From an uncultured bacterium (GTDB lineage: Bacteria > Bacillota > Clostridia > Oscillospirales > Oscillospiraceae): a stretch of DNA of 64,000 nt. The stretch covers positions 42,739 through 106,738 of the forward strand of contig CAOKLO010000003.1 in the NCBI GenBank assembly GCA_948469375.1. Reading direction: 5' to 3'. The position numbers and the translations under genes were made by a program. The notes under the pieces are model-generated. The model was not told where the DNA came from, did not search any database, and was given only the letters and a program-made list of their open reading frames with translations. Positions 10,400-40,008 of this stretch are shown piece after piece (position 1 is the first letter of the stretch; each line of letters begins with the position of its first letter).

Positions 10400-11377
10400 T
10401 TATGCCGCCTTTTGAAAGCGAATACTCTGTGCCCTCATTTGGAGCTCCTGCCCCAGGAACTTCAGCGTGGAAAATTCATCGTCCAGCCCGTCCAGCTCCC
10501 GGCGGAGCACATCCTCATAGTGCTTCTTTTTCTCCTCCAACGCCTGGATTTTCAACACCCAGCGATCCATCACCGCCGGGCTCTGACTGCCGGACTTAAT
10601 GAGATAGTCCGCCCGCTCCTGGTAGGTGGCGATCTCCTTTTTCACCGCCGCATAGAATTCCTCGGTCATTTTAGACCGCTGTTTTTCATCGTCGATGATG
10701 TAAAAGCTGTTCACCATCAGCGGTGTCTCCCTGCGGTTGAGCCCGCCCAACAGCCCGATGAACTCCTCGAACACGTCCACCTTGTCCATGTGGGTGCGGG
10801 GCACGAAGTACATATGCCCCGTGATGCTCAGCTTGGTGGCCTCCAGCCCCCGCAAATAGTTGACACAGATGGTTTCGATCTGTTTCCGGTTGGCGCACTT
10901 CTGATAGAGCTCGAACAGCTCCTCCGCCTTGCGGCAGCAGGCCGGCACGTCGATGGCGTCATCCGGCGCCAGGTTTTCCGCCCGGAACACGCCGTCTTTC
11001 TTATCATAGCTGATGTTCGCCAGCTTTTCGTAGTTGTTGGTACGCTGGTTCAGCGTCTCCTTCACCAGCTCCCGGGATAAAATATCGGCGCTGGTGCGCT
11101 TGTTGTCCCGGCAGTAGGCCAGGTAGATGTTGGTTTCCCCCATCGCCGTCACCGGGACGCGCTCCCGGATGTCTCCGGTGGCGGAGCGGAACGCGTCGCC
11201 CACGGACAGCCGGGTGCCGCCGGCGTAGGGGATTCCCATGTCCTCACACAGCTTGGACAGCTCCACCTTGTCCACCAGCAGGTTTGCCAGGGAGAAATAG
11301 AGGAATTTACCCAACATATGGGCTTTATCGCCTTGGGACGTTCCGATGAAATCGTGCATATCAAATACGTTATCCAT
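10400..11377 (-). CDS. DUF6744-like element protein
   Basis: 325 residues, soluble, without signal peptide. It resembles the DUF6744 group of conserved proteins from Clostridia conjugative elements (recalled, not searched). The C-terminal third (about 235-320) is helical and charged with coiled-coil character (EEKKKHYEDVLRRELDGLDDEF). AAGGAGG precedes the ATG. Last gene of the operon, next to the primase-like gene, so a DNA-metabolism role is possible, but no catalytic motif is visible. Confidence 0.6.
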   Translation of the reverse strand: MDNVFDMHDFIGTSQGDKAHMLGKFLYFSLANLLVDKVELSKLCEDMGIPYAGGTRLSVGDAFRSATGDIRERVPVTAMGETNIYLAYCRDNKRTSADILSRELVKETLNQRTNNYEKLANISYDKKDGVFRAENLAPDDAIDVPACCRKAEELFELYQKCANRKQIETICVNYLRGLEATKLSITGHMYFVPRTHMDKVDVFEEFIGLLGGLNRRETPLMVNSFYIIDDEKQRSKMTEEFYAAVKKEIATYQERADYLIKSGSQSPAVMDRWVLKIQALEEKKKHYEDVLRRELDGLDDEFSTLKFLGQELQMRAQSIRFQKAA

Positions 11378-11398
11378 TACTTTGCCCTCCTTATCTTT

Positions 11399-12463
11399 TT
11401 ACATGACCGCCGCCCGGCTGAGAAGGTAGTCATCCACTCCCTTGTACGCCGGATCCCATGTGTATTTCGTGTATTTTAGGCCCTTGATGGCCTGTACTTC
11501 CCTCCGCATCGCCAGCACGGCGTTGCGGACATCGGGGTTCGTCATCTGATCCATGTCCATGGCCTCCACCACCTGGGTGACGCCCAAATCCTTCAGCGTG
11601 CCCTTGAGCCCGCGGATGGCGTTCACGCCGCCCACGCACACAAACAGCGTGTCATGGGCCAGGTAGCTGGCCACGTCCCCCTTCAGCGGGCCCTCCGTCA
11701 GGAAGGCTCGCTTTTGGGTGGTGTCGCCGGTGACGTGAACCCAGGAATAGCTCCGGGTGCCGTTGGGCCTATCCCGGCTGGACAGCCAGCGGTATTTCCT
11801 GCTGGGCTTATCCGCATCGTCCAGTCGGATCTTCATGCCCTGGATCAGCCCGTCCTTGCTGCGGACAGGGATCAGGAAGCCCTTCGGCCCACAAATCGTC
11901 CAGTCGCCGTAGTAGGTGCGGAACCCCGGCAGCCCCAGCAGCTCATGGCCGCTGGAACGGAGCAGGGCGGCCAAAAGCCGCCGCCCCGCGTCCGTCTCCG
12001 GCATACTGCGGTACTGATTCCGCGCGATACGCTCCTCGGACAGCCCCCGCTCCAGCAGGTTTTCCCGGTGCCGGGGCAGCAGCGTGAGATGCTCCAGCAT
12101 AGAGGTATAGGCTTCGTGCCGCCGCTCCAGGGGCATGGGCTGGCGCTCTGTCTCTGTCCGGGCCTTTGCCTGCCGGGGCATGGGATAGACCTTACCCTCC
12201 CGGGTCAGCGCCTGGTATGCCTCCCGGTTGGTCACGCCCATCAGCCGGGCATACAGCGTCACGCTGTTGCCGTGGGCGCCGCACAGGTTGCAGCGGTACA
12301 GATCCGTGCTGGTGTTCAGGCTGAGGTGATACTTTCCCGGCCCGTGGTCGTGGCAGAAGGGGCAGGTGGCCTCCACCTCCCGGTGCTTCAGCGTCCGGGA
12401 GGCGAGGGCCACACCACACCGTCTGGCCGCGTCCACGATGGGAATTTTGTCATACTGCTTCAC
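11399..12463 (-). CDS. DnaG-type primase: CHC2-like zinc finger plus TOPRIM
   Basis: Likely synthesises primers for element replication. A zinc finger of the CHC2 kind is formed by Cys34, Cys37, Cys58 and Cys61 (CPFCHD and YRCNLCGAHGNS). The C-terminal half has TOPRIM signatures: EGPLKGD, a GGVNAIRGLKG strand-turn and the acidic EAMDMDQ. At 354 residues it is shorter than DnaG and lacks a helicase-binding domain. The start is GTG with no close ribosome site; AGGAGGTGA is about 15 nt upstream, so the true start is less certain. It follows the Rad50-like gene by 19 bp. Confidence 0.78.
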   Translation of the reverse strand: MKQYDKIPIVDAARRCGVALASRTLKHREVEATCPFCHDHGPGKYHLSLNTSTDLYRCNLCGAHGNSVTLYARLMGVTNREAYQALTREGKVYPMPRQAKARTETERQPMPLERRHEAYTSMLEHLTLLPRHRENLLERGLSEERIARNQYRSMPETDAGRRLLAALLRSSGHELLGLPGFRTYYGDWTICGPKGFLIPVRSKDGLIQGMKIRLDDADKPSRKYRWLSSRDRPNGTRSYSWVHVTGDTTQKRAFLTEGPLKGDVASYLAHDTLFVCVGGVNAIRGLKGTLKDLGVTQVVEAMDMDQMTNPDVRNAVLAMRREVQAIKGLKYTKYTWDPAYKGVDDYLLSRAAVM

Positions 12464-12482
12464 GGCCAGACGGGATCACCTC

Positions 12483-14291
12483 CTATGCAGCCTGCCGCTC
12501 CGCCAGGGTGATGGGCCGCACCGGCCGCACCGCCAGCGGCGTACCGCCGACGCACTTTGCCATGATGACCTGCCCGGTGGGCCGCACGTTGTTGAGGTCG
12601 TCCACGGACTCCATGTTGTCCACGAATACCGGGTAATTGCGCCCGGTGAGCCGCTTCATCAGCTCGGACACCTCCATCCCCGCCCGGATCTTCTCGGACA
12701 GGGAGAGCCGGTCATAGCGCCGCCCGCCGTAGGTGAATTTGAACACGTCCTTCCGCTCCCCAGTAGTTTTCACCACATCGTAGAGGGAAATCTCCACCCG
12801 GTTCATCTTCAGCGCGGAGAAGGTTAGCTTCGCCCGTTCGCTCACATAGATGGCAACGTCGGCGATCAGCTTTTTCAGCGCCGTGATCTTGTCCTGGGCG
12901 GCTTTGATCTTTCCGTCAAAGTCCTCCGGCTTCTGATCCGCCGCGGCCTGGGCCGCTTTCAAATCGGCAGCGCACTCCCGCAGTTCCTCCCGGCACTCCT
13001 TCAGCCGGGCGTACTCCACCTCAGAGAGGTTGCCGTACTCCAAGTCGGCGGTGAGCTGCTGGATCTGGGCCCGCAGATCATTCGCCGGGCTGTCCTCGGA
13101 CTTTTTTGCCTTGAGGCCGGCCAACTGCCCTTCCAGCTCGGCCACATCATCGGCCTGGAACTGGTCAAAGACCGCCCTGGCCTTCGCGTCATTTTCGTTC
13201 AGTTCATTGAGCTGGGCCCGCTGCTCCTGGCCGGCGGCAATGGTCGCCTTGCTGGACGTTTCCAGTGCCGAGCGCACCTCCACCAGCGTCTCCGCGGTGA
13301 TGAGGCGGCGGCAGGTGGGGCAGGGTTCGCCAGGGATACAGGCATGGAACGCCTGCTTGTCCTGGTTGAACCGCGCGGCAAGCTCCGCCAGCCGGGCGTT
13401 GGCCTCGGCAATGGCCTGGGTGTAGGGGGACTGGTACTGCTCCGCCTTTCGGGCGGCCAGCTTCCGCTCCAGCGCCAAAATCTCAGCGTCCAGGGGAGAG
13501 TCATCCTGAGCCGCCTCATGGTAGCGGGCGCTGAGCTCCACCAGCTGCTGCTCCATGGCCTTTGTGTCCAGGCCGTCGAACCGCTTGGCCTCCAGCTCCT
13601 CCACCTCCTTGGCAAGGGCCGTGTGGCGGGCGGTCAGGGCGGCAATGCTTTGTTCCCGGTTTTCCCCCTGGGTTTCGCTCAGATCCTTCTGCCCCTGGAA
13701 GTAGATGATGGTTTCCTCCAGCTCCCGGATATCCGCCCGCTTTTTCTTCAGGTAGGTGTCCGGGGAGAGAAGCGGTTCGTTTTCCAGGGCTGCCCGGGTG
13801 GCGTCGGAGAGCTGTGCCAGCACCGCCTCATGGGAAATCAGGGGCAGGTGCCGCTCCAGCAGGTTTTTGCCGTCCTCCCCCAGCTCCTCAATGAAATAGA
13901 GAGGATTGAAGATGGACAGGAACACGTCTTTCTCGCCAAACAGCTCGGTGAGATCCATCTGGCGGATCGTGTAGCCGTCATAGAGGATGGACATGGTGCT
14001 TTTGTGCCGGGTACGGGTGAGCACATGGGCCGTGCCCGCCTCATCCACAAAGTTCATGGTGATGGACACGTCGGGCTGGGCCTCGTTGTGCAGCCGGTCA
14101 ATGCCCCGCTCCCCGAAAAAGGGGAGGCCGGTGACAGCAAAGGCGATGGCGTCGGCGATACTGGTCTTGCCCCGGCCGTTGCCGCCGGTGATGACGGTGG
14201 GATTTCCGAACACCAGGTTTGTGGGTTCCCCATAGGACTTGAACCCGGCGATGGTCATGCCGGTGATCTGAAAACTTTTGATTTTTTCCAT
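12483..14291 (-). CDS. Rad50/SbcC/SMC-like ATPase with zinc hook
   Basis: N-terminal Walker A GGNGRGKTS (residues 36-44) follows the AGFKSYG strand typical of RecF/Rad50 ATPases. A central coiled coil (about 180-460) is interrupted by a CPTC motif (Cys324, Cys327) in GEPCPTCRRL, the zinc-hook signature that joins two Rad50 coils. The C-terminal lobe has LSLSEKIRAG, a signature-motif equivalent, and YPVFVDNMES as Walker B-like strand. At 602 residues it is a compact version. No SbcD/Mre11 nuclease gene is adjacent; the neighbour is a Rad52-like annealing protein. Role inferred: end processing or tethering during element replication or recombination. Confidence 0.8.
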   Translation of the reverse strand: MEKIKSFQITGMTIAGFKSYGEPTNLVFGNPTVITGGNGRGKTSIADAIAFAVTGLPFFGERGIDRLHNEAQPDVSITMNFVDEAGTAHVLTRTRHKSTMSILYDGYTIRQMDLTELFGEKDVFLSIFNPLYFIEELGEDGKNLLERHLPLISHEAVLAQLSDATRAALENEPLLSPDTYLKKKRADIRELEETIIYFQGQKDLSETQGENREQSIAALTARHTALAKEVEELEAKRFDGLDTKAMEQQLVELSARYHEAAQDDSPLDAEILALERKLAARKAEQYQSPYTQAIAEANARLAELAARFNQDKQAFHACIPGEPCPTCRRLITAETLVEVRSALETSSKATIAAGQEQRAQLNELNENDAKARAVFDQFQADDVAELEGQLAGLKAKKSEDSPANDLRAQIQQLTADLEYGNLSEVEYARLKECREELRECAADLKAAQAAADQKPEDFDGKIKAAQDKITALKKLIADVAIYVSERAKLTFSALKMNRVEISLYDVVKTTGERKDVFKFTYGGRRYDRLSLSEKIRAGMEVSELMKRLTGRNYPVFVDNMESVDDLNNVRPTGQVIMAKCVGGTPLAVRPVRPITLAERQAA

Positions 14292-14304
14292 GATTTGCTC
14301 CTCA

Positions 14305-15186
14305 CTATGCCGCCTGGGGCTGGATGTCCGCCACTTTGAACTTTTCCAGCATATAGTAGACGACGGTATCCTGCTGCCTCTTTTCCAGCTTCACATCCAC
14401 CAAAACGATGCCCGCGGCCAGCTCCGGGTGCTCTCCCCGGACAAAGGCGTCCAGCCTGTCCCCCTTGGAGGATTCCAGCCGCAGCTGGGTGCTGCTGGAG
14501 TTGATGCCTTTGTTGATCCTGGCTTTGCGGACAATATACGAGATGCTGTCCTTTCCCGGCTTGCCGGCGGATTTGTCCGCCGCCTTCCCGGAGGAGGTAT
14601 CCCCGGGTTTTTCCTGCCCAGCGTCCGGCCTTTGGCCGTCCGGCGCGGACTCCGGCTGGGGCCGCAGGCCGCCTGCGGGGGCTGGGGTCAGGCCCAGCTT
14701 GCCCAGCATTTTTCGGTAGGCGCAGTCCATCTGTTCCTGCTGGTCTTTTTTGATGATCCAGGTCTTGCCCCGCTTTTCCACTTCTACAAACACCACGTCC
14801 ATGTTATACAGCACCCGGCCGATGCCCCACTGGACGGCGGCCCGCTTCATGCTGTCGGACAGGCCGCCCTTCACGGGCTCGATGTCCGAATCCTCGGCGC
14901 CGTCCCACTTGGTGATGAAGCCTTCCCCGTAGCGGATGGAAATACCGCACAGTTGGGCTTCCTTGCCGTTGGCCCCGTGCCAGGGCTTGAAGTCGTTGTA
15001 CCAGTTCTCCGGGCCCACCACATCATCCAGCCGGCCCATGATGGCCCGGTTGGTGACATAGGGGACGGCGATGCCCTTGGTTTCACCCTGGTACTCAAAC
15101 GTCCTTTGCAGCCGCCATTCCAGATCCTCCGGCGCGAAGGGCATGGCCAGCTCGGCCTGAATCTGTCTCGGGTCTTTCCGTTCCAT
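14305..15186 (-). CDS. Rad52/Rad22-like single-strand annealing protein
   Basis: Residues about 5-160 match the Rad52/22 annealing fold: an N-terminal helix (FAPEDLEWRLQRTF), a basic/aromatic segment, CGISIRYGEGF, and the highly characteristic KWDGAEDSDIEPVKGG followed by SDSMKRAAVQWGIGRVLY. The C-terminal part is a variable Pro/Gly/Lys-rich linker and a short conserved tail. The ATG at 15186 is chosen because GGAGGTAATGGC precedes it. Likely anneals SSB-coated strands; an SSB gene is present at 28.8 kb. It overlaps the E2-like gene's end region closely. Confidence 0.85.
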   Translation of the reverse strand: MERKDPRQIQAELAMPFAPEDLEWRLQRTFEYQGETKGIAVPYVTNRAIMGRLDDVVGPENWYNDFKPWHGANGKEAQLCGISIRYGEGFITKWDGAEDSDIEPVKGGLSDSMKRAAVQWGIGRVLYNMDVVFVEVEKRGKTWIIKKDQQEQMDCAYRKMLGKLGLTPAPAGGLRPQPESAPDGQRPDAGQEKPGDTSSGKAADKSAGKPGKDSISYIVRKARINKGINSSSTQLRLESSKGDRLDAFVRGEHPELAAGIVLVDVKLEKRQQDTVVYYMLEKFKVADIQPQAA

Positions 15187-15190
15187 GCCA

Positions 15191-15868
15191 TTACCTCCCA
15201 TTCATAAAGGCGTTCAGCGTTTTGCCGTCCTCCACCAAAATATCAGAGTAGTAGAAGCCGGGGGATTTGTCCTTCATCAGCTCCAGCAGATCCCGGTACC
15301 CGGCGTGGGGCCGGTTATGCGCGGCCATGAAGTAGTCGTTGTTGTTGGGCAGCCGAAGGATGTACCCCATCAGCGTGTGGAGCCTGAACGGGTCTGGGTA
15401 GGCAGGCAGGGCGTTGTTCCCGGTGCAGATCTGCCCGTTCTCACAGTTGACGTTGGAAAATGGGTAGTGATATGTGGGTGTGTCCGGGGTCAGCAGCTCA
15501 TCCTTCACCACGCACAGCCGGCACTTGCCCACCTTGCCCGTTTTGGCCAGATGCTGGAAGGCAAACACCAGCCGGGGAAGGGGAAAATGGAGATATTCCG
15601 TGCCGTAATAGCTGATGTCGGCGTACAATTCCGGGTATCGGATGAAGTAGGTGGTATTTACCTCCTCCAGAATGGCCGCGACGCAGCCCTCCGGCAGCAG
15701 GCCGGTGGCCCGGGCCTTTTCGTCATACCGGCTGCCCAGGATACAGGCGGCCAGGGCTTCCGGCGAAATGTTCTTGCGGGCGACTACGCCGCCCTCCTTT
15801 TGCTGTTCCAGCGCGATCTCCAGCCGCTCGGGCGAAATGCGCAGGACGATATCGCCATTGCATCCCAT
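15191..15868 (-). CDS. prokaryotic E2-like protein (PRTRC system protein B type)
   Basis: Resembles the Prok-E2 group D / PRTRC protein B family. The diagnostic stretch HYPFSNVNCENGQICTGN around residues 134-151 parallels the HPN...G.ICL active-site region of ubiquitin-conjugating enzymes, with Cys148 in the catalytic position. Upstream lies FPLPRLVFAFQHL. The stop of the gene before it and this ATG overlap region are close (TGAATG), and AAGGAGGCGG precedes the start. With an E1-like and a JAB-like gene 5-7 kb upstream in the same operon, it probably forms part of a ubiquitin-type conjugation cassette. Enzymatic activity has not been shown for this protein. Confidence 0.75.
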   Translation of the reverse strand: MGCNGDIVLRISPERLEIALEQQKEGGVVARKNISPEALAACILGSRYDEKARATGLLPEGCVAAILEEVNTTYFIRYPELYADISYYGTEYLHFPLPRLVFAFQHLAKTGKVGKCRLCVVKDELLTPDTPTYHYPFSNVNCENGQICTGNNALPAYPDPFRLHTLMGYILRLPNNNDYFMAAHNRPHAGYRDLLELMKDKSPGFYYSDILVEDGKTLNAFMNGR

Positions 15869-16432
15869 TCAAGCCGCCTCCTTTGTCTCAGTTTCCTGTT
15901 CCATGCCCAGCGCGCGGCGGAGCCGCCGAACCTGGTATTCCAGCGTGCAGCGGACATCCGCCATGGCTCCGGGCAGTCCCTGGATCCCGCAGAACTCTAT
16001 CCCGGACAGGAACACCAGCCGCTTGCGGCCATGCCCGGTGTCACAAATGCGAAAATCATAGTCGTAAATGTAGTAGCCATCCAAACAGCCCTCCAGGTCG
16101 AACGCGCGCAAGACGTCTGTGACGGCCTCATGCCGCAAATCGCTCTCACCTGGCGCAGCGCCGCACGCCGTCTCGTACTGTGCCAGCAGGCGGCAGAATT
16201 CATCCATTAGGGGGTCAAAGATAACGATGGTGTCTATTTCATTTTCCTGATTCCAGTATCCCGTGTAATCAGGAAAAACACAGCCGACCGCTTCCCACGC
16301 AAAATCGTAGAACTCCTCCCGGCCCAGATCGTAACTGCCGCACCGTTCGAGAAACGGTTCCAGAAAACCATTGTCCGCCAGACGCTTGGCGGTGCACAGA
16401 ATCTGGAATACATTGTCGTCCAATATATCCAT
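15869..16432 (-). CDS. conserved element protein of unknown function
   Basis: 187 residues, acidic, no signal peptide, no recognised motif. It is rich in Tyr and Asp (GYYIYDYDF) and in scattered Cys without a zinc pattern. Start taken at the ATG after GAGGTGCGCC. Placed directly before the E2-like gene, so co-expressed with it. Confidence 0.6.
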   Translation of the reverse strand: MDILDDNVFQILCTAKRLADNGFLEPFLERCGSYDLGREEFYDFAWEAVGCVFPDYTGYWNQENEIDTIVIFDPLMDEFCRLLAQYETACGAAPGESDLRHEAVTDVLRAFDLEGCLDGYYIYDYDFRICDTGHGRKRLVFLSGIEFCGIQGLPGAMADVRCTLEYQVRRLRRALGMEQETETKEAA

Positions 16433-16440
16433 GGCGCACC

Positions 16441-16734
16441 TCAACAAAATTGCCGGGCAGAGCGAGCGACAGGCGCGATGGCGCCGATGCGCTCCGCCGT
16501 CTGCCCCAAAGCCTGGGCAATCCGATATACGGCGTCGTTGTATTCAGCCAGCGCCGAAATGTCGTCTTCGTCAAAGGCGCCGTAGTCGATGGCGCGCAAG
16601 GGTACTGGCTCCCCCCGCAAAAGGGGGAGAAGCACCTGGCTTATCAAATACTCGTTGCAGCTGGCCTGGGGCAAAACCGTCCCCTCCTGTTCCAGTATCA
16701 GCCGCATGACCAGCAGATCCAAGTCCAGCTTCAT
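16441..16734 (-). CDS. small helical protein of unknown function
   Basis: 97 residues, mostly helical by composition (LLVMRLILEQEG, DISALAEYNDAVYRIAQAL). Lies in the operon between two other small genes with gaps of about 10 bp, which supports it being real. Function unknown. Confidence 0.55.
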   Translation of the reverse strand: MKLDLDLLVMRLILEQEGTVLPQASCNEYLISQVLLPLLRGEPVPLRAIDYGAFDEDDISALAEYNDAVYRIAQALGQTAERIGAIAPVARSARQFC

Positions 16735-16746
16735 GCCGCCACCCCC

Positions 16747-17031
16747 TCAGTAGTCGCTGGGGAGCAGGACGGTGGTGGCGGAGCGGTCGGATTCCGTGAT
16801 GATCCAGAACTTTACGTTGTCCTGGGTATGGTAGACAGAGAACAGCCTGTCGCCATTGAGCAGAGCTTCCTCGTTGAGCTCCCCGTCCGACTGGCACACA
16901 TCGCCCCAGTCGCCCTGCAGGTGCCGCTTGATGGCGGCGTCTACCTCCATGTGGGGAAGCACATCCTTCGCGTTGCGGGTGATCATCAATCTGCCCGGAT
17001 GGAACCGGGGGTTTACAGCAATTACACTCAT
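16747..17031 (-). CDS. small plasmid/ICE-type protein of unknown function
   Basis: 94 residues, beginning MSVIAVNPRFHPGRLMITRN and ending RSATTVLLPSDY. This family recurs in conjugative elements and plasmids, sometimes mislabelled as restriction-related; no catalytic motif is visible. TAGGAGGATTCTTT precedes the ATG. It sits just downstream of the methylase gene. Confidence 0.65.
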   Translation of the reverse strand: MSVIAVNPRFHPGRLMITRNAKDVLPHMEVDAAIKRHLQGDWGDVCQSDGELNEEALLNGDRLFSVYHTQDNVKFWIITESDRSATTVLLPSDY

Positions 17032-17042
17032 AAAGAATCCTC

Positions 17043-18458
17043 CTACGTCAGCGCCTTGAAGCCGTTTGGCGTCAAGATGTTGAAAATCATTTTGTTGGTA
17101 ATGGTTTCGTGCAGTTCGGTGCCGGTGTGCCGGCCCTTGGGGTCAAACTGTTCCTCGGTCTCCTTGCGGGTCACCTTCACGATCCGGCCCTTGATGATGT
17201 GGGGCGTGTCGCATTCAATCAGGCCGTTGATCATCCCGGAGCCGCCGATCAGCCCGATTTGGCTGATGGACAGGGGCAGCGGCGGGCGCTTCACCCCGCT
17301 GTCCAGCTCGCTGCGGGCCATCATCCGCTGGAAGCTGTCCGAATGGCTCAACTGCCGCTCCAGCTCCTTCTCGTTGAACTTCTCCCCCCGGAAGGTCTTT
17401 ACCTCCAGCAGTCTGGCCGGGAGGGGGTAGCGCCCCTCGGGCAGTTCGGTCAGGCAGGGGATCGAGTCAGGGTGCGCGGCAAACCATTCCAGCCAGCGGG
17501 TGTCCTGGGGCTCCGTGTCGCGCTGCTTCCGCGTGCCCAAAATGGCCACCTGCTTGAATTTTTTGAACTCGGCGTCGGTAAACCGCCACAGGCCCAGGTT
17601 TTCAAAATTGTCCGCCAGCACCCGGCAGATATCCGGGGTGAGCCGGTAGTAAGGGACGACGTATACCAGCAGGCCGCCCATAGCCAGCGCGCCCAGGCTC
17701 TCAATGAGGAACCGCTTCTCATGCCGCGCCCTGCCGCCGCTCTCATTGAGCACGGACAGGTAGGGCGGGTTGAGGAACAGCAGATGGAAAGCGTTGGCGC
17801 TGACCTGGCTGAAAAAGAAGCTGCCGAAGCCCACCCGATGTAAACGGGTCTGGGCCTCATCGGCCCGGGCGTTGTCCAGTTCCACGCCGTAGGTGTAGCA
17901 GTTGTTCCCGTCGGCGATCTGCCGCAGGGCCTTGCCGCAGCCGCAGCAGGGGTCCAGCAGATTGGTGGTGACCCCCTCCGGGAACTGAATGCCCTTCAAA
18001 ATCAGCGCGATGTTGTCCGGGTCGGTGGGGTAGTACCCCAGCTTGATGTTGTTCATCAGCCGCCCCACCACCCTGGCGTTGGTGGTTCCATCCACGGGAA
18101 GCTGGGCGGCGAAGCCGTTCAGCGCGTCATACACCGGGCGGTAGGTATTGCTCAGCAGGTTAAACCCCAGCAGGCCCTCCTTCAGCTGGCCCGCGTTGGC
18201 GGCCAGTTGGTATTCTTCCGTCTCCATCAGCAGGAGCTGGGCCTCGCCCAATGCCTCCGCCAGCCGTTGCCTTGTATTTTGCAGATCGTTGTAATCGTCC
18301 CGCGCAGCGGCAAGATCGGTATTTCGGTGCCGCTCCACCCTGGCCCGGCACAGCACCATGGTCTGGGTGAGCCGGGGGACTTCGCTTTGAAGTCCCCGCA
18401 GCCCCTCCAGGGCATAGCTGCGCGGTTCGGTTTGGGGCGCGTTAGGCTGCCCGCCCAT
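17043..18458 (-). CDS. N6-adenine-type DNA methylase (DUF6094-like)
   Basis: A helical N-terminal region (residues 1-130) is followed by a class I methyltransferase fold: SAM-binding motif LLDPCCGCGKAL (169-180), acidic GVELDN (about 193-198) and the catalytic NPPY (232-235) of N6-adenine methylases. The C-terminal 170 residues include a proline-rich beta segment of unknown role. The start is the ATG spaced 6 nt after GGAGG. No restriction endonuclease neighbours it, so it may protect or mark the element (inference). The family is common in large Clostridia elements. Confidence 0.8.
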   Translation of the reverse strand: MGGQPNAPQTEPRSYALEGLRGLQSEVPRLTQTMVLCRARVERHRNTDLAAARDDYNDLQNTRQRLAEALGEAQLLLMETEEYQLAANAGQLKEGLLGFNLLSNTYRPVYDALNGFAAQLPVDGTTNARVVGRLMNNIKLGYYPTDPDNIALILKGIQFPEGVTTNLLDPCCGCGKALRQIADGNNCYTYGVELDNARADEAQTRLHRVGFGSFFFSQVSANAFHLLFLNPPYLSVLNESGGRARHEKRFLIESLGALAMGGLLVYVVPYYRLTPDICRVLADNFENLGLWRFTDAEFKKFKQVAILGTRKQRDTEPQDTRWLEWFAAHPDSIPCLTELPEGRYPLPARLLEVKTFRGEKFNEKELERQLSHSDSFQRMMARSELDSGVKRPPLPLSISQIGLIGGSGMINGLIECDTPHIIKGRIVKVTRKETEEQFDPKGRHTGTELHETITNKMIFNILTPNGFKALT

Positions 18459-18891
18459 AGCCACCCTCCTCCCGCACCGCCGCCAACAGGAACAGCAGGT
18501 CGGGATAGCTCATCTCCGCCAAATCCCGGCGGGTGAGATACAGGTTGCGCCCGCCGGTGTAATCCTTGCTGTGGCGGACGGTGCGGTAGAGCAGCACCCG
18601 CTCCCGGTCACAGCAGGGCTGGGACAGCTGAACATACAGCCCATTGGTCTGCCACATCCCGATCAGGGAGCAGTCCCCGGACACGGCGATGCCGCCGGGG
18701 TTGGATCGCGCCTCGGCGTCCCTCAGACCCAGGTCCTTGCCCAGTGCCCGGAGAAACGTCCGGCCCATGTTCAAAAATTGCTTCTTCGCGCCGTTGGGGC
18801 CGCTCTCGTTTTCGCCCCAGATGTAGGACAGATCCTGAGAAAACAGCTTGGCCAGCCTGCGCATATTCTTTTCCTGTGATTTGTGGGACAT
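18442..18891 (-). CDS. unknown element protein upstream of the methylase
   Basis: 149 residues. The N-terminus is basic (HKSQEKNMRRLAKLFSQDL), and the C-terminal part has YLTRRDLAEMSYPDLLFLL. Start taken at the second ATG, because AAGGAGG is only 2 nt from the first. It overlaps the methylase gene by 17 bp, indicating coupled translation. No known motif. Confidence 0.6.
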   Translation of the reverse strand: MSHKSQEKNMRRLAKLFSQDLSYIWGENESGPNGAKKQFLNMGRTFLRALGKDLGLRDAEARSNPGGIAVSGDCSLIGMWQTNGLYVQLSQPCCDRERVLLYRTVRHSKDYTGGRNLYLTRRDLAEMSYPDLLFLLAAVREEGGYGRAA

Positions 18892-18957
18892 TTTCATGAC
18901 CTCCTTAAAATTGAGAGGACAGGAAACGGCCGCTTCCTGCCTCCGGTTCGCCCGCAG

Positions 18958-19488
18958 TTAAGCGGCGGGCTTGTTTTCCTTCTCAGTTTCCAGGTGGACA
19001 ACCGGCGTGGGGTTCTTGACCTCGTACTCCGCGTCCACCACGTCCTCAGCGGGAGCGGTGAAGCGCAGCCACCAGGCACGCAGGCTGGACGCCAGCAGAA
19101 AGCGGAACAGGCTCCGTTTTTTCTGCTTAAGGTTGATGATCTCGTCAGCGTCCACGTCATGGACGTAGCTGAGCACTACCGACAGCTGGCTTGCCTGCAC
19201 ATAGTCCGCGGACAACAGGCACGACACGGCGGCGCTTTCCGACGCAAACAGCTCAGAGGTCTCTACGCGCTTGGCAATCAAACGCCGGCAGGACACTCTT
19301 ACCGAACTCAGCTCATCCGCGCGAATGTCGTCCGCCGAAATACTGCTGGCCGTAACAGAGCCGCTTCCAATAATTTTTTTTGCCCTGAGGTCATAGGTCA
19401 CCTTCAGGCACCCCTCTACCACCAGGCACTCGGTGGTAAGGTTATCATAGGACATGGTTTCACCGCGGGGGATGTACACAATTTTCAT
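18958..19488 (-). CDS. bactofilin-like beta-repeat protein
   Basis: 176 residues. After a short lead, residues about 15-115 show repeating short strands (LVVEGCLKV, IIGSGSVTA, SSISADDIRA, DELSSVRVS) with the periodic hydrophobic/small pattern of right-handed beta-helix or bactofilin folds. A basic aromatic segment (SLFRFLLASSLRAWWLRF) could touch the membrane. The ATG follows AGGAGGAAGCTGAAC. A polymer-forming role is inferred only from the repeat pattern. Confidence 0.55.
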   Translation of the reverse strand: MKIVYIPRGETMSYDNLTTECLVVEGCLKVTYDLRAKKIIGSGSVTASSISADDIRADELSSVRVSCRRLIAKRVETSELFASESAAVSCLLSADYVQASQLSVVLSYVHDVDADEIINLKQKKRSLFRFLLASSLRAWWLRFTAPAEDVVDAEYEVKNPTPVVHLETEKENKPAA

Positions 19489-19501
19489 GTTCAGCTTCCT
19501 C

Positions 19502-19975
19502 CTATTTCTGATAGTTTCGGAGAATGGGATCCCCGTTCTTCTCGTGCAGGTTATAGTGGGCGTCAAACACCAAATGATGGTTTTCCTCGCCGGTAGCGCC
19601 GCAGTCCAGACAGTGCCAGGTCAGGATGAAGTTCCACTCCGAGGAACCCTCGTGGTCGTACTTGATCCTGCCGCCGCACACCGGGCAGACGCCGGGTTCG
19701 TCCGAGCTGCTGGCCCCGGCGCGGATGCCGCACTGGGAGATGTACGGGATCAAATCGTTGGGATCCATCTCGGCCAGCTTCCGCGCTGTTTCGATGATGT
19801 GATCCCGCTTTTCCGCCGCGAACAGCCCGGATATCTCAAGGGCCGCAGCGCCGGAAAGATCCTCCTTGGAGCCTGCGCTGAGCACGGTGGCCCCGTAGCC
19901 CAGATACAGATTCAAGGCGATCAAAAACGAAATGGTATCCTTGCGGTAGAGCCTGCTAAATTCCTTGAAATCCAT
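19502..19975 (-). CDS. zinc-ribbon protein of unknown function
   Basis: 157 residues: a helical N-terminal half and a C-terminal zinc ribbon formed by CPVCGG and WHCLDCGA. AGGAGGAAACA precedes the ATG. Located between the beta-clamp and the bactofilin-like gene with about 10-bp spacing. Function unknown. Confidence 0.6.
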   Translation of the reverse strand: MDFKEFSRLYRKDTISFLIALNLYLGYGATVLSAGSKEDLSGAAALEISGLFAAEKRDHIIETARKLAEMDPNDLIPYISQCGIRAGASSSDEPGVCPVCGGRIKYDHEGSSEWNFILTWHCLDCGATGEENHHLVFDAHYNLHEKNGDPILRNYQK

Positions 19976-19984
19976 TGTTTCCTC

Positions 19985-21088
19985 CTATGCCGCCCTGCTG
20001 GCTTCTCCCAGCCGGACGGGCATGACCAGGGCCCGGTCGCCGCGTCCCTGGGCCTCAATGATGATGGGGCCCAGGGAGCCGGCGCTGACCTTCATGTTCA
20101 CTGACGGCTCCTTTTCAAACTGCTTCAGGGCGTCCGTCATGTAATCCAGGCTGAACCCAAATTCCACGCCTTCGCAGCCGATGGCGGAGATTTTCGTGGC
20201 GTACCGCTCCCCCATGCTCTCGGCCAGCAGCGCGCCGCCGCTGAAGCGCACCAGGTGGGCGCGGTTTCCCCGCAGGGACTGCTTCAGATACTTCAGCTCC
20301 GCCAGGAACTCCTTCGGGGACACCTGGAACTCCGCCCGGAACTTGTCCGTGAGGGCACTGTCCAGCTTATACAGCTCGCCCTCGGGCAGACAGAACACCA
20401 GCGACGTCATGCCGTCGGTCACCCTGGCGAACCGCTCCCCCAGCTGGACGGAGACCTCCTGATCCCCGAACAGCTTCAAATGCTCCAGCGCGTCCGGGGC
20501 CGCCATGAAGGGCGCGGGTACCTCCAGCTCCGGGTCGGTGTCCCAGGCCATACGGCAGCCGTCCAGGGTGTAGACACGGTTCCCGCTGAACTGCACGCTG
20601 ATCAGGCAGGCCCTGGCCTCCTCTTTGCGAGGAATCCCCACAGCGTACTTCACCCGCTCCACACGGGCGTACAGCCTGGCGGCGTTGACGTTGAAGCTGT
20701 GCATAGGCTCCCACGCCTGCTGCTCAGGAAAATCATCGGGTAGGAACGGGTGCAGCTCCGCAGACCGGGGCCCGCAGGACAGCGCCAGCTTGATCCGCCG
20801 CCGGTCGCCTTCCCCCGTTTCCGTCTGCTCCATGGCCAATTCGCCCTCAAACTGCCGGAAGGCCCGGGCGCTCTCGCGGGGCCGATCCAGCAAAAAGGCA
20901 AAGCTGTCGCCCTGGGCCGGCATCCCTACGGACAGCCAGGTGTTCAGGTTGGTGGAGGCCAAGGTGCAGCGGCCCTCCTCGAACCGAACCAGCACCGCGT
21001 TCAGCACCGGGATAACCGATTTGTGGATCAGGCCGCTCACCTGATCCAATGCCTGGGCGAAGGTTTTTGCGTTTACCGTTGCTCTCAT
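19985..21088 (-). CDS. DNA polymerase III beta-clamp homologue (first of two)
   Basis: 367 residues, the usual DnaN length. It shows the family opening (FAQALDQVSGLIHKSVIPVLNAVLVRFEEGRCTL) and three repeated domains, with the DnaN-like end MPVRLGE. Sequence is divergent from chromosomal clamps, so it is probably an element-specific sliding clamp. Its ATG overlaps the TGA of the E1-like gene (ATGA), so translation is coupled to the ubiquitin-type cassette. A second, different clamp is encoded at 35.7-36.9 kb. Confidence 0.8.
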   Translation of the reverse strand: MRATVNAKTFAQALDQVSGLIHKSVIPVLNAVLVRFEEGRCTLASTNLNTWLSVGMPAQGDSFAFLLDRPRESARAFRQFEGELAMEQTETGEGDRRRIKLALSCGPRSAELHPFLPDDFPEQQAWEPMHSFNVNAARLYARVERVKYAVGIPRKEEARACLISVQFSGNRVYTLDGCRMAWDTDPELEVPAPFMAAPDALEHLKLFGDQEVSVQLGERFARVTDGMTSLVFCLPEGELYKLDSALTDKFRAEFQVSPKEFLAELKYLKQSLRGNRAHLVRFSGGALLAESMGERYATKISAIGCEGVEFGFSLDYMTDALKQFEKEPSVNMKVSAGSLGPIIIEAQGRGDRALVMPVRLGEASRAA

Positions 21089-21864
21089 GCCGCTTTCTTC
21101 CTCCTTGTACTTGTTTTTTGCAGCTCAGGCCGCACATTGACGGTCTGGGTGGAAAAGGTCACCTGCCGCACGGTGCTGCTGCCCGTGGCCAGGATGTTGT
21201 AGATCATGTCCACCACCGCCATGGCCGCCGTGATGTTGGCCGCCATGCTCTGGGGGGCAGACACCGACGCCTCGGAGCAGGACAGCTCCGTGGGGAACTT
21301 GTCCGTTTCCTCCAGCACGTCCGGGTAGACGATGCCGATGGGCGGGTAGTAGGTTCTGCCGCCCCGGCGCACGCCGCACACCACCTGCCCGGTGAACTCG
21401 CCGTTGCCGCTGTCGATGTAGATCAGTTCTTCGGATTGGTAGAACACCCGGTGGCACATCTGCCGGGACTTGTTGTTGTCCACGGCGCCGATGAGGATGA
21501 CCAATTCCGGCGTCCGCACGTTGTATTCGTGGCCGGGCTGGCGCATCCAGAGATGCTCCGGTTTCAGCAGGCCGCGAAGCTGCACCTCATCCTCCACGAA
21601 AGAGGGCACATACTCCGTCTCCATGCCGAACACGGCGGAATACCGCTCCGCCAGCACCCTGGCCTTGTTCTCCCCCAGGTCGGCGGGGGTGAAGTTCTGC
21701 CGCACCAGGTTCTTTTCCTCCACCACGTCGCCGTCGCAGAGGATGAACCGAACCGGGCGTTTCAGCGAGTACAGCAGGCGGTACAGGTGGGGCGCGATGT
21801 GCCCCCCGGTGCCGCCCGCGCCCAGCATGACGATCTTCACTGGGCGGGTCATAGAAAACTTCAT
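21085..21864 (-). CDS. E1/ThiF-like adenylyltransferase (PRTRC ThiF type)
   Basis: Predicted to adenylate the C-terminus of a ubiquitin-like protein. Rossmann motif LGAGGTGG at residues 14-21, the ATP-site residues Asp44/Asp46 with Asn52, Arg55 and Gln56 (DGDVVEEKNLVRQNF), and the candidate catalytic Cys196 in ELSCSEAS, followed by AANITAAMAVV as in E1/PRTRC ThiF proteins. The true start is the ATG at 21864, overlapping the JAB gene's TAA as TAATG. 259 residues. Forms one coupled unit with the JAB and beta-clamp genes. Confidence 0.85.
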   Translation of the reverse strand: MKFSMTRPVKIVMLGAGGTGGHIAPHLYRLLYSLKRPVRFILCDGDVVEEKNLVRQNFTPADLGENKARVLAERYSAVFGMETEYVPSFVEDEVQLRGLLKPEHLWMRQPGHEYNVRTPELVILIGAVDNNKSRQMCHRVFYQSEELIYIDSGNGEFTGQVVCGVRRGGRTYYPPIGIVYPDVLEETDKFPTELSCSEASVSAPQSMAANITAAMAVVDMIYNILATGSSTVRQVTFSTQTVNVRPELQKTSTRRKKAA

Positions 21865-23261
21865 TAGACAATCCCCTGACACCGAAGCCGCTCAGCCAAA
21901 GGATGCAGCACCGGCGGGGCGCTTCTGCGCAGCAGCTTCACCTGAGTGCGCCACTCGGCGGGGAACGCCGCGCCAAAGCTCTCCAGCACGCACCCCGGGG
22001 GCAGCGTCAGGTAGGTGCCGCCGCAGGACATCCGCACCGTGATATCGGGGAAGAACTTGTCCAGGCGGCCCACCACGATGTAGATGCGGGTGGCCCGTTC
22101 GTCCTCATCGTCCACGGGGGAGAACTTGGCCTCCATGCTGTTGTGGCTGTGTATGTCGATGTAGTGGAGATACCGCTCCTCCGGCAGATCGTCCCGGTTC
22201 AGTTTGGCGTCGATGTGGGCTTTGGTCACCGTCTGCTCAGGGACGCGCACCACAAATTCCTGCTCCTGCTTGTCCCATAGGATGTGGGCCAGCGCCTCAA
22301 ATTCCTCGGGGCCGGTCATGCAGCACCGAAAGAAGGAGATGATCTGGGCCAGCAGCTCCATAGGAACCAGCGGGAGGGCCGGGGTAAACCCGGCCCTGAC
22401 CGATTCCAGGTCGATCACGCTGTCTTTCGGGGCGATGAACTCGCCCAGCTCGTTTTTGCGCAGCTCGTACACCCTGCCGTCTGCGCAGGGGATGGTGCAG
22501 ATGGCCTTGTCCGACGCCCGGGCCTCCTCCAGCGAGGCGAACACGCCCTTATAGGCGGCGATGCCCTTGCTTTGGGCGGTGACACGGGGCTTCACCAGGC
22601 AGTCCGGGTTCTTGTCCTTGGCCTTCTTGAGGTTGTCCAGAAACGCCTTGGACAGCTCGATCTCCGACTTGACGGAGGAGATGGTGGTGCCCTTGGGGTC
22701 GGTGATGGTTTTGACCGTCTTGCCGTACTCCACCGTCCAGGACACCTTCTTGCCCTCGCCCAGCTCGGGGAAATCCGCCGACTTGGCGATGCGAAGCTCC
22801 TCAAAAGTCATGCCGGGGTCGGTGATGTCCTCTCGGGCGCTGCCGTAGTGGAACACCGGGGCCTTCTCGAACAGAGATTTGGCCGCCTTTTGCTCGGTCT
22901 TGGCCTCCTGCTCCGCCATGGCGGCGGCCAGGGGGTCGATGTCCAGCGGGGGCTGGGTCGCCGGGGCTGCGGAAGCCGCCGCAGGCGCAGGGGCCGGGGC
23001 GGGCTGCACAGGCTGGACGCTCTGAAACGGGGGCGGCGCAGATGCTGCGGGCTGCGCCTGCTCGGCGGGCGTAGCCGTCTGGGGCTGTCCCTGCGGGATG
23101 GATGCGGCGGGCGCGGCCTGCTGAGCCAGCGCCGCTTCAAAGGGGTTCACTTCGCCGGGGGTTCCGCCGTCAGGCGCGCCGCCGAAGATGGCATTGATGT
23201 CTAGGCCCTCGCCGCCGGACAGCTCCGCAAAGGGGAATCCGCTGTTGCTTTGTTCACTCAT
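21864..23261 (-). CDS. JAB/JAMM-domain metallopeptidase-like protein (PRTRC protein A type)
   Basis: 465 residues, first gene of the operon. Residues 30-125 are low-complexity Pro/Ala/Gln. A middle domain (150-300) has no motif I recognise. The C-terminal domain carries the JAMM zinc-site pattern: His371-Ser-His373, Ser381 and Asp384 in DIHSHNSMEAKFSPVDD. This is the predicted deconjugating or Ub-tail-processing enzyme of the cassette. The start is the ATG after GAGAGGAG. An in-frame GTG at 23390 would read through the leader's terminator hairpin and is rejected. Confidence 0.8.
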   Translation of the reverse strand: MSEQSNSGFPFAELSGGEGLDINAIFGGAPDGGTPGEVNPFEAALAQQAAPAASIPQGQPQTATPAEQAQPAASAPPPFQSVQPVQPAPAPAPAAASAAPATQPPLDIDPLAAAMAEQEAKTEQKAAKSLFEKAPVFHYGSAREDITDPGMTFEELRIAKSADFPELGEGKKVSWTVEYGKTVKTITDPKGTTISSVKSEIELSKAFLDNLKKAKDKNPDCLVKPRVTAQSKGIAAYKGVFASLEEARASDKAICTIPCADGRVYELRKNELGEFIAPKDSVIDLESVRAGFTPALPLVPMELLAQIISFFRCCMTGPEEFEALAHILWDKQEQEFVVRVPEQTVTKAHIDAKLNRDDLPEERYLHYIDIHSHNSMEAKFSPVDDEDERATRIYIVVGRLDKFFPDITVRMSCGGTYLTLPPGCVLESFGAAFPAEWRTQVKLLRRSAPPVLHPLAERLRCQGIV

Positions 23262-23289
23262 AGTCTTTTCTCCTCTCGTTTTTGGGGAC

Positions 23290-23332
23290 AAAAAAAGACC
23301 GCGAACCGCCCAATGGGGCAACTCACAGTCTT
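23290..23332 (-). terminator. leader attenuator hairpin, copy 1
   Basis: On the minus strand a 17-bp stem (AAGACTGTGAGTTGCCC with GGGCGGTTCGCGGTCTT, G-U pairs allowed) closes a 4-nt loop and is followed by seven T. It lies between the leader promoter and the first gene, so full-length transcription needs readthrough. Confidence 0.8.
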
Positions 23333-23342
23333 CTTGTCCAGA

Positions 23343-23503
23343 TATTTTGTTCTTCCAGGCCGCTTCAGTCCGGCGGAGGGCAGACTTCACCCCTTTCCAC
23401 GCCGTTCCTCCCTCGCTTACTCCGCCCTAACTTACTCCGCCCTGAAATACAGGTTCATTGTACCATGCCGGGGCGCGGGCGGATAGGTGGAGGGGTTCCA
23501 CCT
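23343..23503 (-). repeat. 161-bp duplicated operon leader, copy 1
   Basis: Matches 40018-40178 in the same orientation with three visible differences. It contains a tandem AGGGCGGAGTAAG repeat (two copies and a third partial), the promoter, the operator half and the leader frame. It precedes the JAB-E1-clamp operon. Confidence 0.95.
23365..23400 (-). CDS. putative leader peptide VERGEVCPPPD, copy 1
   Basis: GTG-started 11-codon frame, 5-6 nt after GGGAGGA, ending Cys-Pro-Pro-Pro-Asp-TGA. Pro-Pro-Asp is a known EF-P-dependent stalling motif. The stop lies about 33 nt before the attenuator stem. Retained in the second leader copy. Translation is not proven. Confidence 0.4.
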   Translation of the reverse strand: MERGEVCPPPD

Positions 23504-23505
23504 AT
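23457..23505 (-). promoter_or_regulatory. extended -10 promoter and inverted-repeat operator, copy 1
   Basis: TGGTACAAT gives a TGn-extended -10 (TACAAT at 23457-23462) with a weak -35. A 9-bp inverted repeat, ATAGGTGGA and TCCACCTAT separated by 5 nt (23483-23505), covers the -35 region, as expected for a repressor site. Confidence 0.6.
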
Positions 23506-23519
23506 TTTAATCGAACATA

Positions 23520-39800: not shown

Positions 39801-39939
39801 CCGGGTAGCCGCCGAAGCGGATGGCGGTGATGGTGCTGCTCCCTCCGGCGCTTTCCACCATAATGGTGTCGGCGTATGCGGTGAGCCGGACATTTGATTT
39901 GGGATCGAAATAGGATAGCTCAATCAATCTGCTTGACAT
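36889..39939 (-). CDS. large SF2 (SNF2/DEAD-like) helicase
   Basis: 1016 residues, first gene of the second leftward operon. A 290-residue N-terminal extension is followed by the ATP site AECGSGKTK (302-310), an inserted four-Cys zinc ribbon (CPDCGEVV near 413, CKSCGSQLW near 448), the DEAD-box equivalent LLCDELHEY near 538, RVLVYTSWTRTDSQQKLLKLL and ITNQKCVETGLDL with RQASRRSWRINQ as motifs V-VI. The C-terminus is Lys-rich. Such helicases occur in large conjugative elements and phages; role inferred as DNA remodelling or replication. Confidence 0.85.
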   Translation of the reverse strand: MSSRLIELSYFDPKSNVRLTAYADTIMVESAGGSSTITAIRFGGYPEMVRAMADAIYGGATIETVQNDKKRNLKSIPKKYRRQLAHDGVYATATLMAGDDALTAEPQDDGEDSEAEAGTQQEIQPRKCYLFCPAGDRNSLFRELDSKTAAPLIPEFRDYVLDTLIARGDLRQLEVFSLKEKLDAYVLNLKPEDANMVEILEDGLKSGAIAIPGTVPGQPDGFDGVENVTGYLNTFGATVAQRIRGQFKPLFDPAAEPLSEEVLAVNDTIQANAGYSLYDAQLAVAEAVKRQLKRKKTALIVAECGSGKTKIGATALGALQGMHAALSPRSKTFNLVMAPSHVTKKWVREIGETLPNTFAMVVKSITDFDRLYRAYEAGDKNVYAVFSKEKARDGYMRYPAVTYDRMAGGFRCPDCGEVVQMTISDDGTKYEVNADQFYFQREHRGNHICKSCGSQLWSAINPGRQIKWAKITDYGWVYREMAAQHKSRTKNERILSRLEEIAAHPDGYEPVQGACRRYALSTYIKKKYRGRIDGLLCDELHEYNNASGQGDAMGELYGVSKMFVGMTATLINGYSSGIFHLLYRLVPGLMRKDDKPYNKPAWFDEEYGVVENIYEIVESDYNSNRRTIKHKLRSKKLPGVSPLVYSRFLLEYTAFLSLSDMGKDLPDYEEIPVPLDMPEKVREGYEYAEHILQKVLKSDRKAANKLLSAYLNLLTVYPDQPYDQPEIVHPIDGDVIVKPANAACFEDILPKEEKVLEIVRDKVAAGGRVLVYTSWTRTDSQQKLLKLLTQAGYRTEILATTVPPNKREEWVEKRVRSGLQVLITNQKCVETGLDLNDFTTLIFYSMGFNLFTLRQASRRSWRINQAAPRVEVYLLYYKDTMQAKAMKLMASKLAVAGIIEGTLSEEGLAAMSDVRDLTSQMAKELSLGIKDNVEDIAAAFKKMAVINPERRARPAAQPVTEAPALEAPTIRTESARVQRQTYDGLLERTLEEQKKKKKPKKPVVDENQFTLDGFAA

Positions 39940-39966: not shown

Positions 39967-40008
39967 AAAAAAAGACCGTGACTACCCTGCTGGGCAATTC
40001 ACAGTCTT
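39967..40008 (-). terminator. leader attenuator hairpin, copy 2
   Basis: Minus-strand stem AAGACTGTGA / TCACGGTCTT plus CCC/GGG at the loop, with an internal loop between, followed by seven T. Same position relative to promoter and first gene as copy 1. Confidence 0.78.

What the first reader, a model, noticed from the sequence alone, without database searches (positions are those of the whole stretch)
23343..23503. A 161-bp leader is duplicated almost perfectly ahead of two separate leftward operons
Positions 23343-23503 and 40018-40178 match with three differences, far above the similarity of flanking DNA. Both contain the same extended -10 promoter, tandem AGGGCGGAGTAAG repeats and operator. 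They stand before the JAB-E1-clamp operon and the helicase-clamp operon, so one regulatory signal could fire the two DNA-metabolism modules together. A third copy may precede the transfer operon beyond the window.
Basis: seen in the sequence. Interest (0 to 1): 0.8.

Follow-up and report, generated by a model that had tools for sequence, protein, structure and literature searches.

The report
Paired leader RNAs gating two operons
A conjugative DNA element of gut bacteria starts its two large DNA-handling operons with nearly the same promoter and leader, each followed by what looks like a transcription stop signal just before the first gene, and several distant relatives repeat this paired design with different leader sequences, which points to a new RNA-based read-through switch.

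Summary
The repeat is real: 23343-23503 and 40018-40178 differ at 3 of 161 positions. It is more than a duplicated promoter. On the minus strand each copy is a dyad operator, an extended -10 promoter and a leader of about 106 nt with tandem AGGGCGGAGTAAG repeats; just outside the reported coordinates follow an intrinsic-terminator-like hairpin with seven T and the first gene. Of 42 copies examined, 16 precede a JAB-E1 operon, 14 a helicase operon and 8 an xerDC-RNA/recombinase-type locus; four cannot be placed; none was seen before transfer genes. All 30 JAB and helicase copies carry the hairpin. Distant elements (helicase 44-55% identical) have leaders the model does not recognise, yet 6 of 7 seen on both sides repeat the paired layout. 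Leader and terminator fold apart, so ordinary attenuation is unlikely. Best reading: a cis-acting leader RNA that lets RNA polymerase pass the start-of-operon terminator, working like Tn916 canT, pLS20 conAn or LoaP-dfn. It matches no Rfam family, and nine leader genomes show one NusG gene each. Termination and read-through are inferred, not shown.

The parts
23484..23504 (-). copy A: dyad operator TAGGTGGAACCCCTCCACCTA, abutting the -35 position
   Evidence: read; dyad shared between paired copies in 8 of 8 genomes; position counted by eye
23457..23465 (-). copy A: extended -10 promoter TGGTACAAT; start of transcription inferred near 23450
   Evidence: recurs in relatives as TGRTAAAAT and similar
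23346..23451 (-). copy A: leader RNA (match to model R1)
   Evidence: 121.3 bits (this copy was in the model's alignment)
23431..23443 (-). copy A: repeat 1 AGGGCGGAGTAAG (5' strand of closing helix P1)
23416..23428 (-). copy A: repeat 2 AGGGCGGAGTAAG (5' strand of helix P2)
23400..23413 (-). copy A: degenerate repeat 3 AGGGAGGAACGGCG
23297..23330 (-). copy A: terminator-like hairpin, followed by T7 at 23290-23296
   Evidence: -24.6 kcal/mol in its longer form
21864..23261 (-). first gene of operon A (JAB-like protein, 465 aa)
   Evidence: PF14464 19.5 bits, below the curated cut-off of 25
10400..21882 (-). rest of presumed operon A: ThiF/E1, beta-clamp (sub-threshold), DUF6094, Prok-E2_D, Rad52, SMC-like ATPase, DnaG-zinc-ribbon-like protein (sub-threshold), DUF6744
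40159..40177 (-). copy B: dyad operator
40132..40140 (-). copy B: extended -10 promoter TGGTACAAT
40021..40126 (-). copy B: leader RNA (match to model R1)
   Evidence: 117.9 bits (in the model's alignment)
40106..40118 (-). copy B: repeat 1
40091..40103 (-). copy B: repeat 2
40075..40088 (-). copy B: degenerate repeat 3
39974..40006 (-). copy B: terminator-like hairpin, followed by T7 at 39967-39973
   Evidence: -22.8 kcal/mol in its longer form
36889..39939 (-). first gene of operon B (helicase, 1016 aa)
   Evidence: PF00271 and PF04851
26240..36877 (-). rest of presumed operon B: beta-clamp, DUF3268, small protein 31126-31536 with sub-threshold sigma region 2 similarity, MoxR ATPase, SSB, vWA protein

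Best explanation
Each copy is an operator-promoter-leader unit that gates one long operon of a conjugative element. RNA polymerase starts at the extended -10 promoter, whose dyad lets a regulator, presumably element-encoded, act on both promoters. It then transcribes the leader RNA (tandem repeats, a closing helix and a hairpin) and reaches an intrinsic terminator just before the first gene. By default transcription stops there. The leader RNA, alone or with a trans factor, acts on the elongating polymerase so that it passes the terminator and transcribes the operon of about 13-14 kb. Two nearly identical leaders switch the JAB-E1-clamp-recombination module and the helicase-clamp-MoxR module together. 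SHOWN by computation: the repeat, the promoter and leader anatomy, the recurring terminator-like hairpin, the recurrence of the pair in distant elements, likeness of the two copies within most elements, and independent folding of leader and hairpin. INFERRED: that the genes form operons, that the hairpin terminates in vivo, that the leader causes read-through, and that a regulator or trans factor exists.
For: A hairpin with a T tract stands behind 30 of 30 class A/B leaders and 12 of 12 leaders of six distant elements under a loose rule; the same loose rule finds 49 of 303 ORFs in four stretches. Under a strict rule: 29 of 30 and 7 of 12 (one script hit discounted) against 26 of 303. The terminator's 5' arm pairs with the leader with mean probability at most 0.02 in 30 of 30 (L081 redone), so no competing antiterminator is predicted. 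Distant leader hairpin: 8 of 19 pairs change on both sides, 93.9% paired against at most 53.5% when slid. Window-type leader: 8 of 21 pairs change on both sides. Six distant elements repeat the paired design. Among 8 elements the best B match of each A leader is its own element's (8 of 8, one tied). Dyads shared in 8 of 8 genomes. Precedents: canT, LoaP-dfn, AlpA.
Against: No expression data. The reverse comparison is weaker: best A match of each B leader is its own in 7 of 8 (one tied; G249 prefers G503), and with close relatives included 10 of 13 one way and 8 of 13 the other. The leader is better kept than the terminator hairpin between paired copies in only 7 of 13 elements (rough measure). 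One element of seven (viral record with L049 and L108) shows no such leader on either side. Control for the window-type structure: sliding partners by +1 still gives 7 pairs with changes on both sides, against 8. Only 2 terminator-like sites lie inside operon B and none inside operon A on the sense strand, so nothing shows a need for protection over kilobases. In L083 the terminator is the weaker fold (arm paired 0.27). No trans factor was identified.
Confidence: 0.6

Rival explanations
1. Promoter-loaded antitermination of the lambda Q or AlpA kind: a protein binds the dyad DNA, boards RNA polymerase at the promoter and carries it through the leader terminator; the repeats and leader structure are secondary.
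For: AlpA controls two operons, each with a binding site in the promoter and terminators before the first gene (passages). Here too a promoter dyad is shared between paired copies, and the two promoters of plasmid OY725881 share a 20-bp upstream stretch.
Against: The leader itself is kept between copies, and its covarying hairpin and tandem repeats recur in distant elements. The AlpA site lies between -35 and -10; the dyad here abuts the -35 position. Dyads were not searched for systematically in the distant elements.
Confidence: 0.16
2. Attenuation with a switch: a protein or small molecule binds the leader and refolds it so that the terminator does or does not form (riboswitch or T-box logic).
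For: Leader followed by a terminator is the usual layout of such switches; the repeated units allow alternative pairings within the leader.
Against: No predicted pairing of the terminator arm with the leader. No Rfam match at gathering threshold; at relaxed threshold only an 11.3-bit T-box match (cut-off 93) and snoRNA-like chance matches.
Confidence: 0.1
3. The hairpin is not a working terminator but a 5' stabiliser or processing site, and the conserved unit is mainly a coregulated promoter with DNA repeats (iteron-like operators).
For: Repeats have a 14-16 bp period; the dyad is conserved; no transcript data; 5 of 12 distant hairpins miss the strict terminator rule.
Against: Long T tract behind a GC-rich stem in 29 of 30 window-type copies under the strict rule; compensatory changes in the leader argue for RNA.
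Confidence: 0.11
4. Dispersed mobile repeat without function.
For: Copies also occur in prophage and xerDC contexts.
Against: 38 of 39 copies with downstream DNA sit in sense before one of three recurring targets.
Confidence: 0.03

Closest known systems
canT antiterminator RNA of Tn916 (PLoS Genet 2024, PMC11658703; passages read)
   Same: Cis-acting RNA behind the main promoter of a Gram-positive conjugative element; needed to pass element terminators; works without other element genes
   Different: Defined on a 452-bp fragment, described as one region, linked to its terminators only after excision; here leaders of about 106 nt come in pairs, each with its own terminator. Sequences not compared here.
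conAn of pLS20 (NAR 2021, not held, nothing read; via review PMC8955417, passages read)
   Same: Antitermination at the start of long operons of Gram-positive conjugative plasmids
   Different: conAn has a protein (ConAn1) plus RNA (conAn2) and more than 20 internal terminators; here 2 terminator-like sites were seen inside the operons. R1 does not match bases 1-50000 of the 65,774-bp pLS20 record
LoaP-dfn (mBio 2025, PMC12691694; passages read)
   Same: Two operons share a nearly identical leader RNA hairpin, each with an intrinsic terminator in the leader
   Different: LoaP is a NusG paralog; nine leader genomes show one NusG-family gene each, none on a leader contig
AlpA of Pseudomonas aeruginosa (Nat Commun 2021, PMC7969949; passages read)
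   Same: Two operons, shared promoter site, terminator(s) before each first gene
   Different: A DNA-loaded protein; no leader RNA motif in the passages seen
EAR (B. subtilis eps operon) and put (phage HK022)
   Same: RNA-only antitermination elements, as described in passages of PMC11658703 and PMC8955417
   Different: No Rfam family matches the leader; that Rfam holds EAR is recalled; put sequence not compared
xerDC RNA (Rfam RF03062)
   Same: Lies downstream of the leader in four class C loci
   Different: A separate motif; all four matches are below Rfam's cut-off (35.7-69.8 bits, cut-off 72.5)

Membership tests
RNA-type antitermination element (canT, put, EAR kind) | transcribed RNA element between promoter and terminator(s) | tested here: met
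   anatomy only; transcription itself not observed
RNA-type antitermination element (canT, put, EAR kind) | element causes read-through in cis, independent of terminator sequence | not testable with these tools
   only indirect: no leader-terminator pairing; terminator sequences differ between lineages
RNA-type antitermination element (canT, put, EAR kind) | several terminators bypassed over long distance (processivity) | tested here: inconclusive
   2 terminator-like sites inside operon B, none inside operon A on the sense strand
LoaP-dfn | LoaP, a second NusG-family protein | tested here: not met
   one NusG-family match in each of 9 genomes; several are incomplete assemblies, so a missed copy is possible
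conAn (pLS20) | sequence relation of the RNA to pLS20 | tested here: not met
   R1 has no match at E up to 10 in bases 1-50000 of NC_015148; the remaining 15,774 bases were not searched
conAn (pLS20) | ConAn1 processivity protein | not tested
   ConAn1 was not identified in the record; only four sigma-like proteins were compared with pLS20 bases 1-50000, best E 0.22
any Rfam family | covariance-model match above gathering score | tested here: not met
   0 matches in the window; relaxed scans of 23200-23620 and of 8 distant loci gave nothing near a cut-off
Transcription attenuation by competing hairpins | antiterminator pairing with the terminator arm | tested here: not met
   (prediction only)

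The most novel reading that the evidence does not exclude
A new class of antitermination leader in which each conjugative element runs a private channel: its two (or more) leaders and an unknown element-encoded factor co-diversify, so that one element's factor opens its own two operons and not those of a neighbouring element or prophage in the same cell.
Probability: 0.28. Interest if true: 0.8.

Novelty: new variant of a known kind. Interest (0 to 1): 0.62.

Why it matters
Large conjugative elements must keep costly DNA-processing operons silent and then open several at once. A shared leader with a start-of-operon terminator would be a compact way to do that. Paired leaders that change from lineage to lineage in Clostridia give natural sets of variants with which to test how an RNA instructs RNA polymerase, and whether such signals are specific to each element. 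The leader also marks a group of large gut elements that carry ubiquitin-like (E1, E2, JAB) and sliding-clamp genes, and it ties them to prophage recombinase loci.

Tried and rejected
Dispersed repeat: rejected. Third copy at the transfer operon: looked for in the own genome, behind the examined leader copies and by start-of-gene terminators in plasmid OY725881 (where none of the listed transfer-side hits was followed by a leader search); none found, and the window ends at a contig end. Competing-hairpin attenuation: not supported. LoaP: not supported. Known Rfam RNA: none. pLS20 relation: none in the 50,000 bases fetched. Sigma-like small protein as trans factor: a lead only; Pfam sub-threshold, profile comparison weak. 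Internal terminators as a reason for processive antitermination: few found. My first idea that terminators diverge more than leaders held in 7 of 13 pairs only. A global-alignment identity matrix between lineages was unreliable because of free end gaps and was replaced by local scores. The near-invariance of the repeats in the first 30 loci follows from the search pattern; copies found otherwise are more variable.

The scores for the best explanation and the novel case were lowered slightly for this.

Full report
OBSERVATION. The stretches 23343-23503 and 40018-40178 differ at 3 of 161 positions. The repeat finder extends the match to 167 nt at 97%; the next longest repeat it lists is 37 nt. 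In the own genome (143 contigs) a DNA search finds both copies plus one 46-nt stretch at 89% on contig C27; the covariance model finds the same three and one doubtful 23-bit place, having scored 150 of 1654 candidates. Outside the repeat, similarity falls to chance, except for a hairpin directly downstream of each copy.

ANATOMY. Both copies read on the minus strand: a dyad (GGTGGAACCCCTCCACC) abutting the -35 position, an extended -10 (TGGTACAAT), then, from about 5 nt later, the leader. It has two AGGGCGGAGTAAG units with a period of 15, a degenerate third, a hairpin, and a strand that closes the whole (UUCAGG with CCUGGA). About 20 nt further lies a GC-rich hairpin (-24.6 and -22.8 kcal/mol) followed by seven T, then a likely ribosome-binding site and the first gene. 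Presumed operon A (23261 to 10400) begins with a JAB-like protein and holds E1 (ThiF), a beta-clamp, an E2-like protein, Rad52 and an SMC-like ATPase. Presumed operon B (39939 to 26240) begins with a helicase and holds a beta-clamp, MoxR, SSB and a vWA protein. The JAB, clamp A and DnaG-zinc matches are below Pfam's cut-offs. RepA_N, coupling-protein and VirB4-like genes, and a sub-threshold TrbL match, mark the element as conjugative.

RELATIVES WITH THE SAME LEADER. An exact pattern of the two repeats gave 30 stretches in a collection of 84,980 species genomes; 26 of the 30 titles name Oscillospiraceae or genera that I place there from memory. It gave 1 viral contig, and blastn gave 1 phage-collection record, which holds the helicase gene. 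Model R1 found 4 of 150 genomes of the family, own genome included, under stricter filters, and 35 places in 20 genomes that already had a copy. I examined 42 leader copies; four places (G425:C33, G437:C12, G437:C87, G438:C94) were not examined. Of the 42, 16 precede the JAB gene and 14 the helicase gene within 700 nt, and 8 a class C locus. The other four are truncated (L008, L022), too short downstream (L041) or a doubtful match (L039). Class C is assigned as follows: xerDC RNA, below Rfam's cut-off, behind L003, L004, L017 and L026; integrase domains found behind L017 and L015; L032 by reading its downstream protein, and L009 and L018 by likeness of their downstream DNA. Behind L003 itself no recombinase was identified. 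The repeats look near-invariant in the pattern-selected set by construction; copies found otherwise vary.

TERMINATOR. A hairpin followed by a T tract stands behind 30 of 30 class A and B copies (for L083 the script picked a wrong hairpin and the right one was read in the output). Under a strict rule (five T, at most -12 kcal/mol, within 130 nt) 29 of 30 pass, L080 with its inserted hairpin does not; the same rule finds 26 of 303 ORFs of at least 100 aa in four stretches, leader genes included. In folded leader-plus-terminator RNAs the 5' arm of the terminator pairs with the leader with mean probability at most 0.02 in 29 of 30; L081, a truncated match, gave 0.30 there and 0.00 when its arm was marked correctly. 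In L083 the arm pairs with its own 3' arm only to 0.27. On the sense strand 2 terminator-like sites lie inside operon B and none inside operon A.

STRUCTURE. On 39 leaders (36 distinct) aligned by the model, 83.7% of cells pair and 8 of 21 pairs have changes on both sides; 0 of 500 shuffles reach either. Slid versions pair at most 57.8%, but the +1 slide still shows 7 pairs with changes on both sides; this alignment also leans towards the structure. The distant subtype (8 sequences, MAFFT alignment) has 19 pairs, 8 with changes on both sides, 93.9% paired, slid versions at most 53.5%; the number of further pair types did not exceed shuffles (151 of 500 reached it).

DISTANT ELEMENTS. Helicase relatives at 44-55% identity occur in 6 of 295 genomes of the order and 5 of 391 of the class, own genome included in each, in plasmid OY725881 of Subdoligranulum variabile and in one viral record. 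L048 matched only from residue 229 and was dropped. Of 10 other helicase loci, 9 have a repeat-bearing leader and a hairpin with T tract before the gene, judged by eye; L049 does not. Model R1 does not match these leaders, but they share the plan: repeats with a period near 14-16 (for example GATGGTAAGCAGTTAA), in most a hairpin ending in GTGCGCC, GTCTGCC or GTGCGTC, then the terminator. For the JAB operon, 6 of 7 loci with upstream DNA have the leader of the same element (G503, G489, G588, G249, G220, OY725881). L108 does not, L102 and L109 are cut off, and two JAB fragments in G106 (L112, L113) were not examined. So 6 of 7 elements seen on both sides have the pair; the seventh is the viral record with L049 and L108. 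A loose rule finds the terminator behind 12 of 12 leaders of the six elements, against 49 of 303 ORFs. The strict rule finds 8 of 12 by script, of which one is the leader hairpin of G249.A, so 7 of 12. In four elements the first gene on the JAB side is a small protein; two of these four have sub-threshold sigma region 2 similarity.

CO-DIVERSIFICATION. With local alignment scores among 8 elements (OWN and Flint share the window leader type), the best B leader for each A leader is its own element's in 8 of 8 (OY725881 tied with G588 at 18). In the other direction it is 7 of 8: G249.B prefers G503.A (50 against 32; G249.A carries an insertion), and OY725881 is tied again. Within-element scores are 18-122; between-element A-A and B-B scores average 17.7, maximum 64. 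With close relatives included, 10 of 13 one way and 8 of 13 the other, so at short range the copies behave like ordinary orthologues. The dyad is shared between paired copies in 8 of 8 genomes (one substitution in CATABD.A), with five dyad types among the eight; a second JAB-side copy in CAOJHG and the prophage copy in the own genome carry other dyads.

MECHANISM. A leader that folds apart from its terminator and recurs in pairs before the same two operons is best explained by an RNA, alone or with a factor, that changes the elongating polymerase. In print, canT RNA does this for Tn916 without other element genes (passages of PMC11658703). conAn does it on pLS20 with a protein (passages and outline of PMC8955417; the original paper was not held). 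LoaP acts on two operons through a shared leader hairpin and a leader terminator (passages of PMC12691694). AlpA acts on two operons from promoter sites (passages of PMC7969949). LoaP is unlikely here: nine leader genomes each show one NusG-family gene, none on a leader contig. Termination and read-through were not shown.

NOVELTY. No Rfam family matches. Paper searches on antitermination in conjugative elements listed the systems above and nothing that I recognised as this leader (listings; one search returned none); most subscription papers are outside that library. I file it as a new variant of a known kind: it works like an antitermination leader, but membership in a named family is not claimed.

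Noticed in passing
window 39937-39943 (minus strand) and the other helicase-class loci: The helicase start reads ATGAATG in 14 of 14 class B copies: an upstream ATG opens a very short overlapping frame (MNVKQID-stop in the window), which suggests translational coupling or a leader peptide.
   Followed up: partly
L003 about 1347-1400 and L017 (L094) about 0.5 kb downstream of the leader: A second leader-like element with tandem AGGTAAGA/AGGTCAGA units lies near the AGGGCGGAG leader and resembles the leaders of plasmid OY725881.
   Followed up: partly
L003 about 1888-1990 and 2214-2310; L004, L017, L026 downstream of the leader: A conserved non-coding element without a name here (TGATTGATTCTATGYGCG...) sits between the leader and the xerDC RNA, apparently twice in the own-genome prophage.
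   Followed up: no
L019, L024, L035, L080 leaders: The central loop of the leader carries an inserted hairpin of about 50-60 nt (GCACAGCTC...GAGCTGTGGC and variants) in these elements.
   Followed up: no
window 31126-31536 and first JAB-side genes in L114-L117: Small proteins, three of five with weak sub-threshold sigma-70 region 2 similarity, travel with these elements; candidates for an RNA-polymerase-binding factor.
   Followed up: partly
window 10400-23261: The JAB-side operon joins E1, E2-like and JAB-like genes with a sliding clamp and Rad52 on a conjugative element; plasmid OY725881 and G435 carry similar sets.
   Followed up: partly
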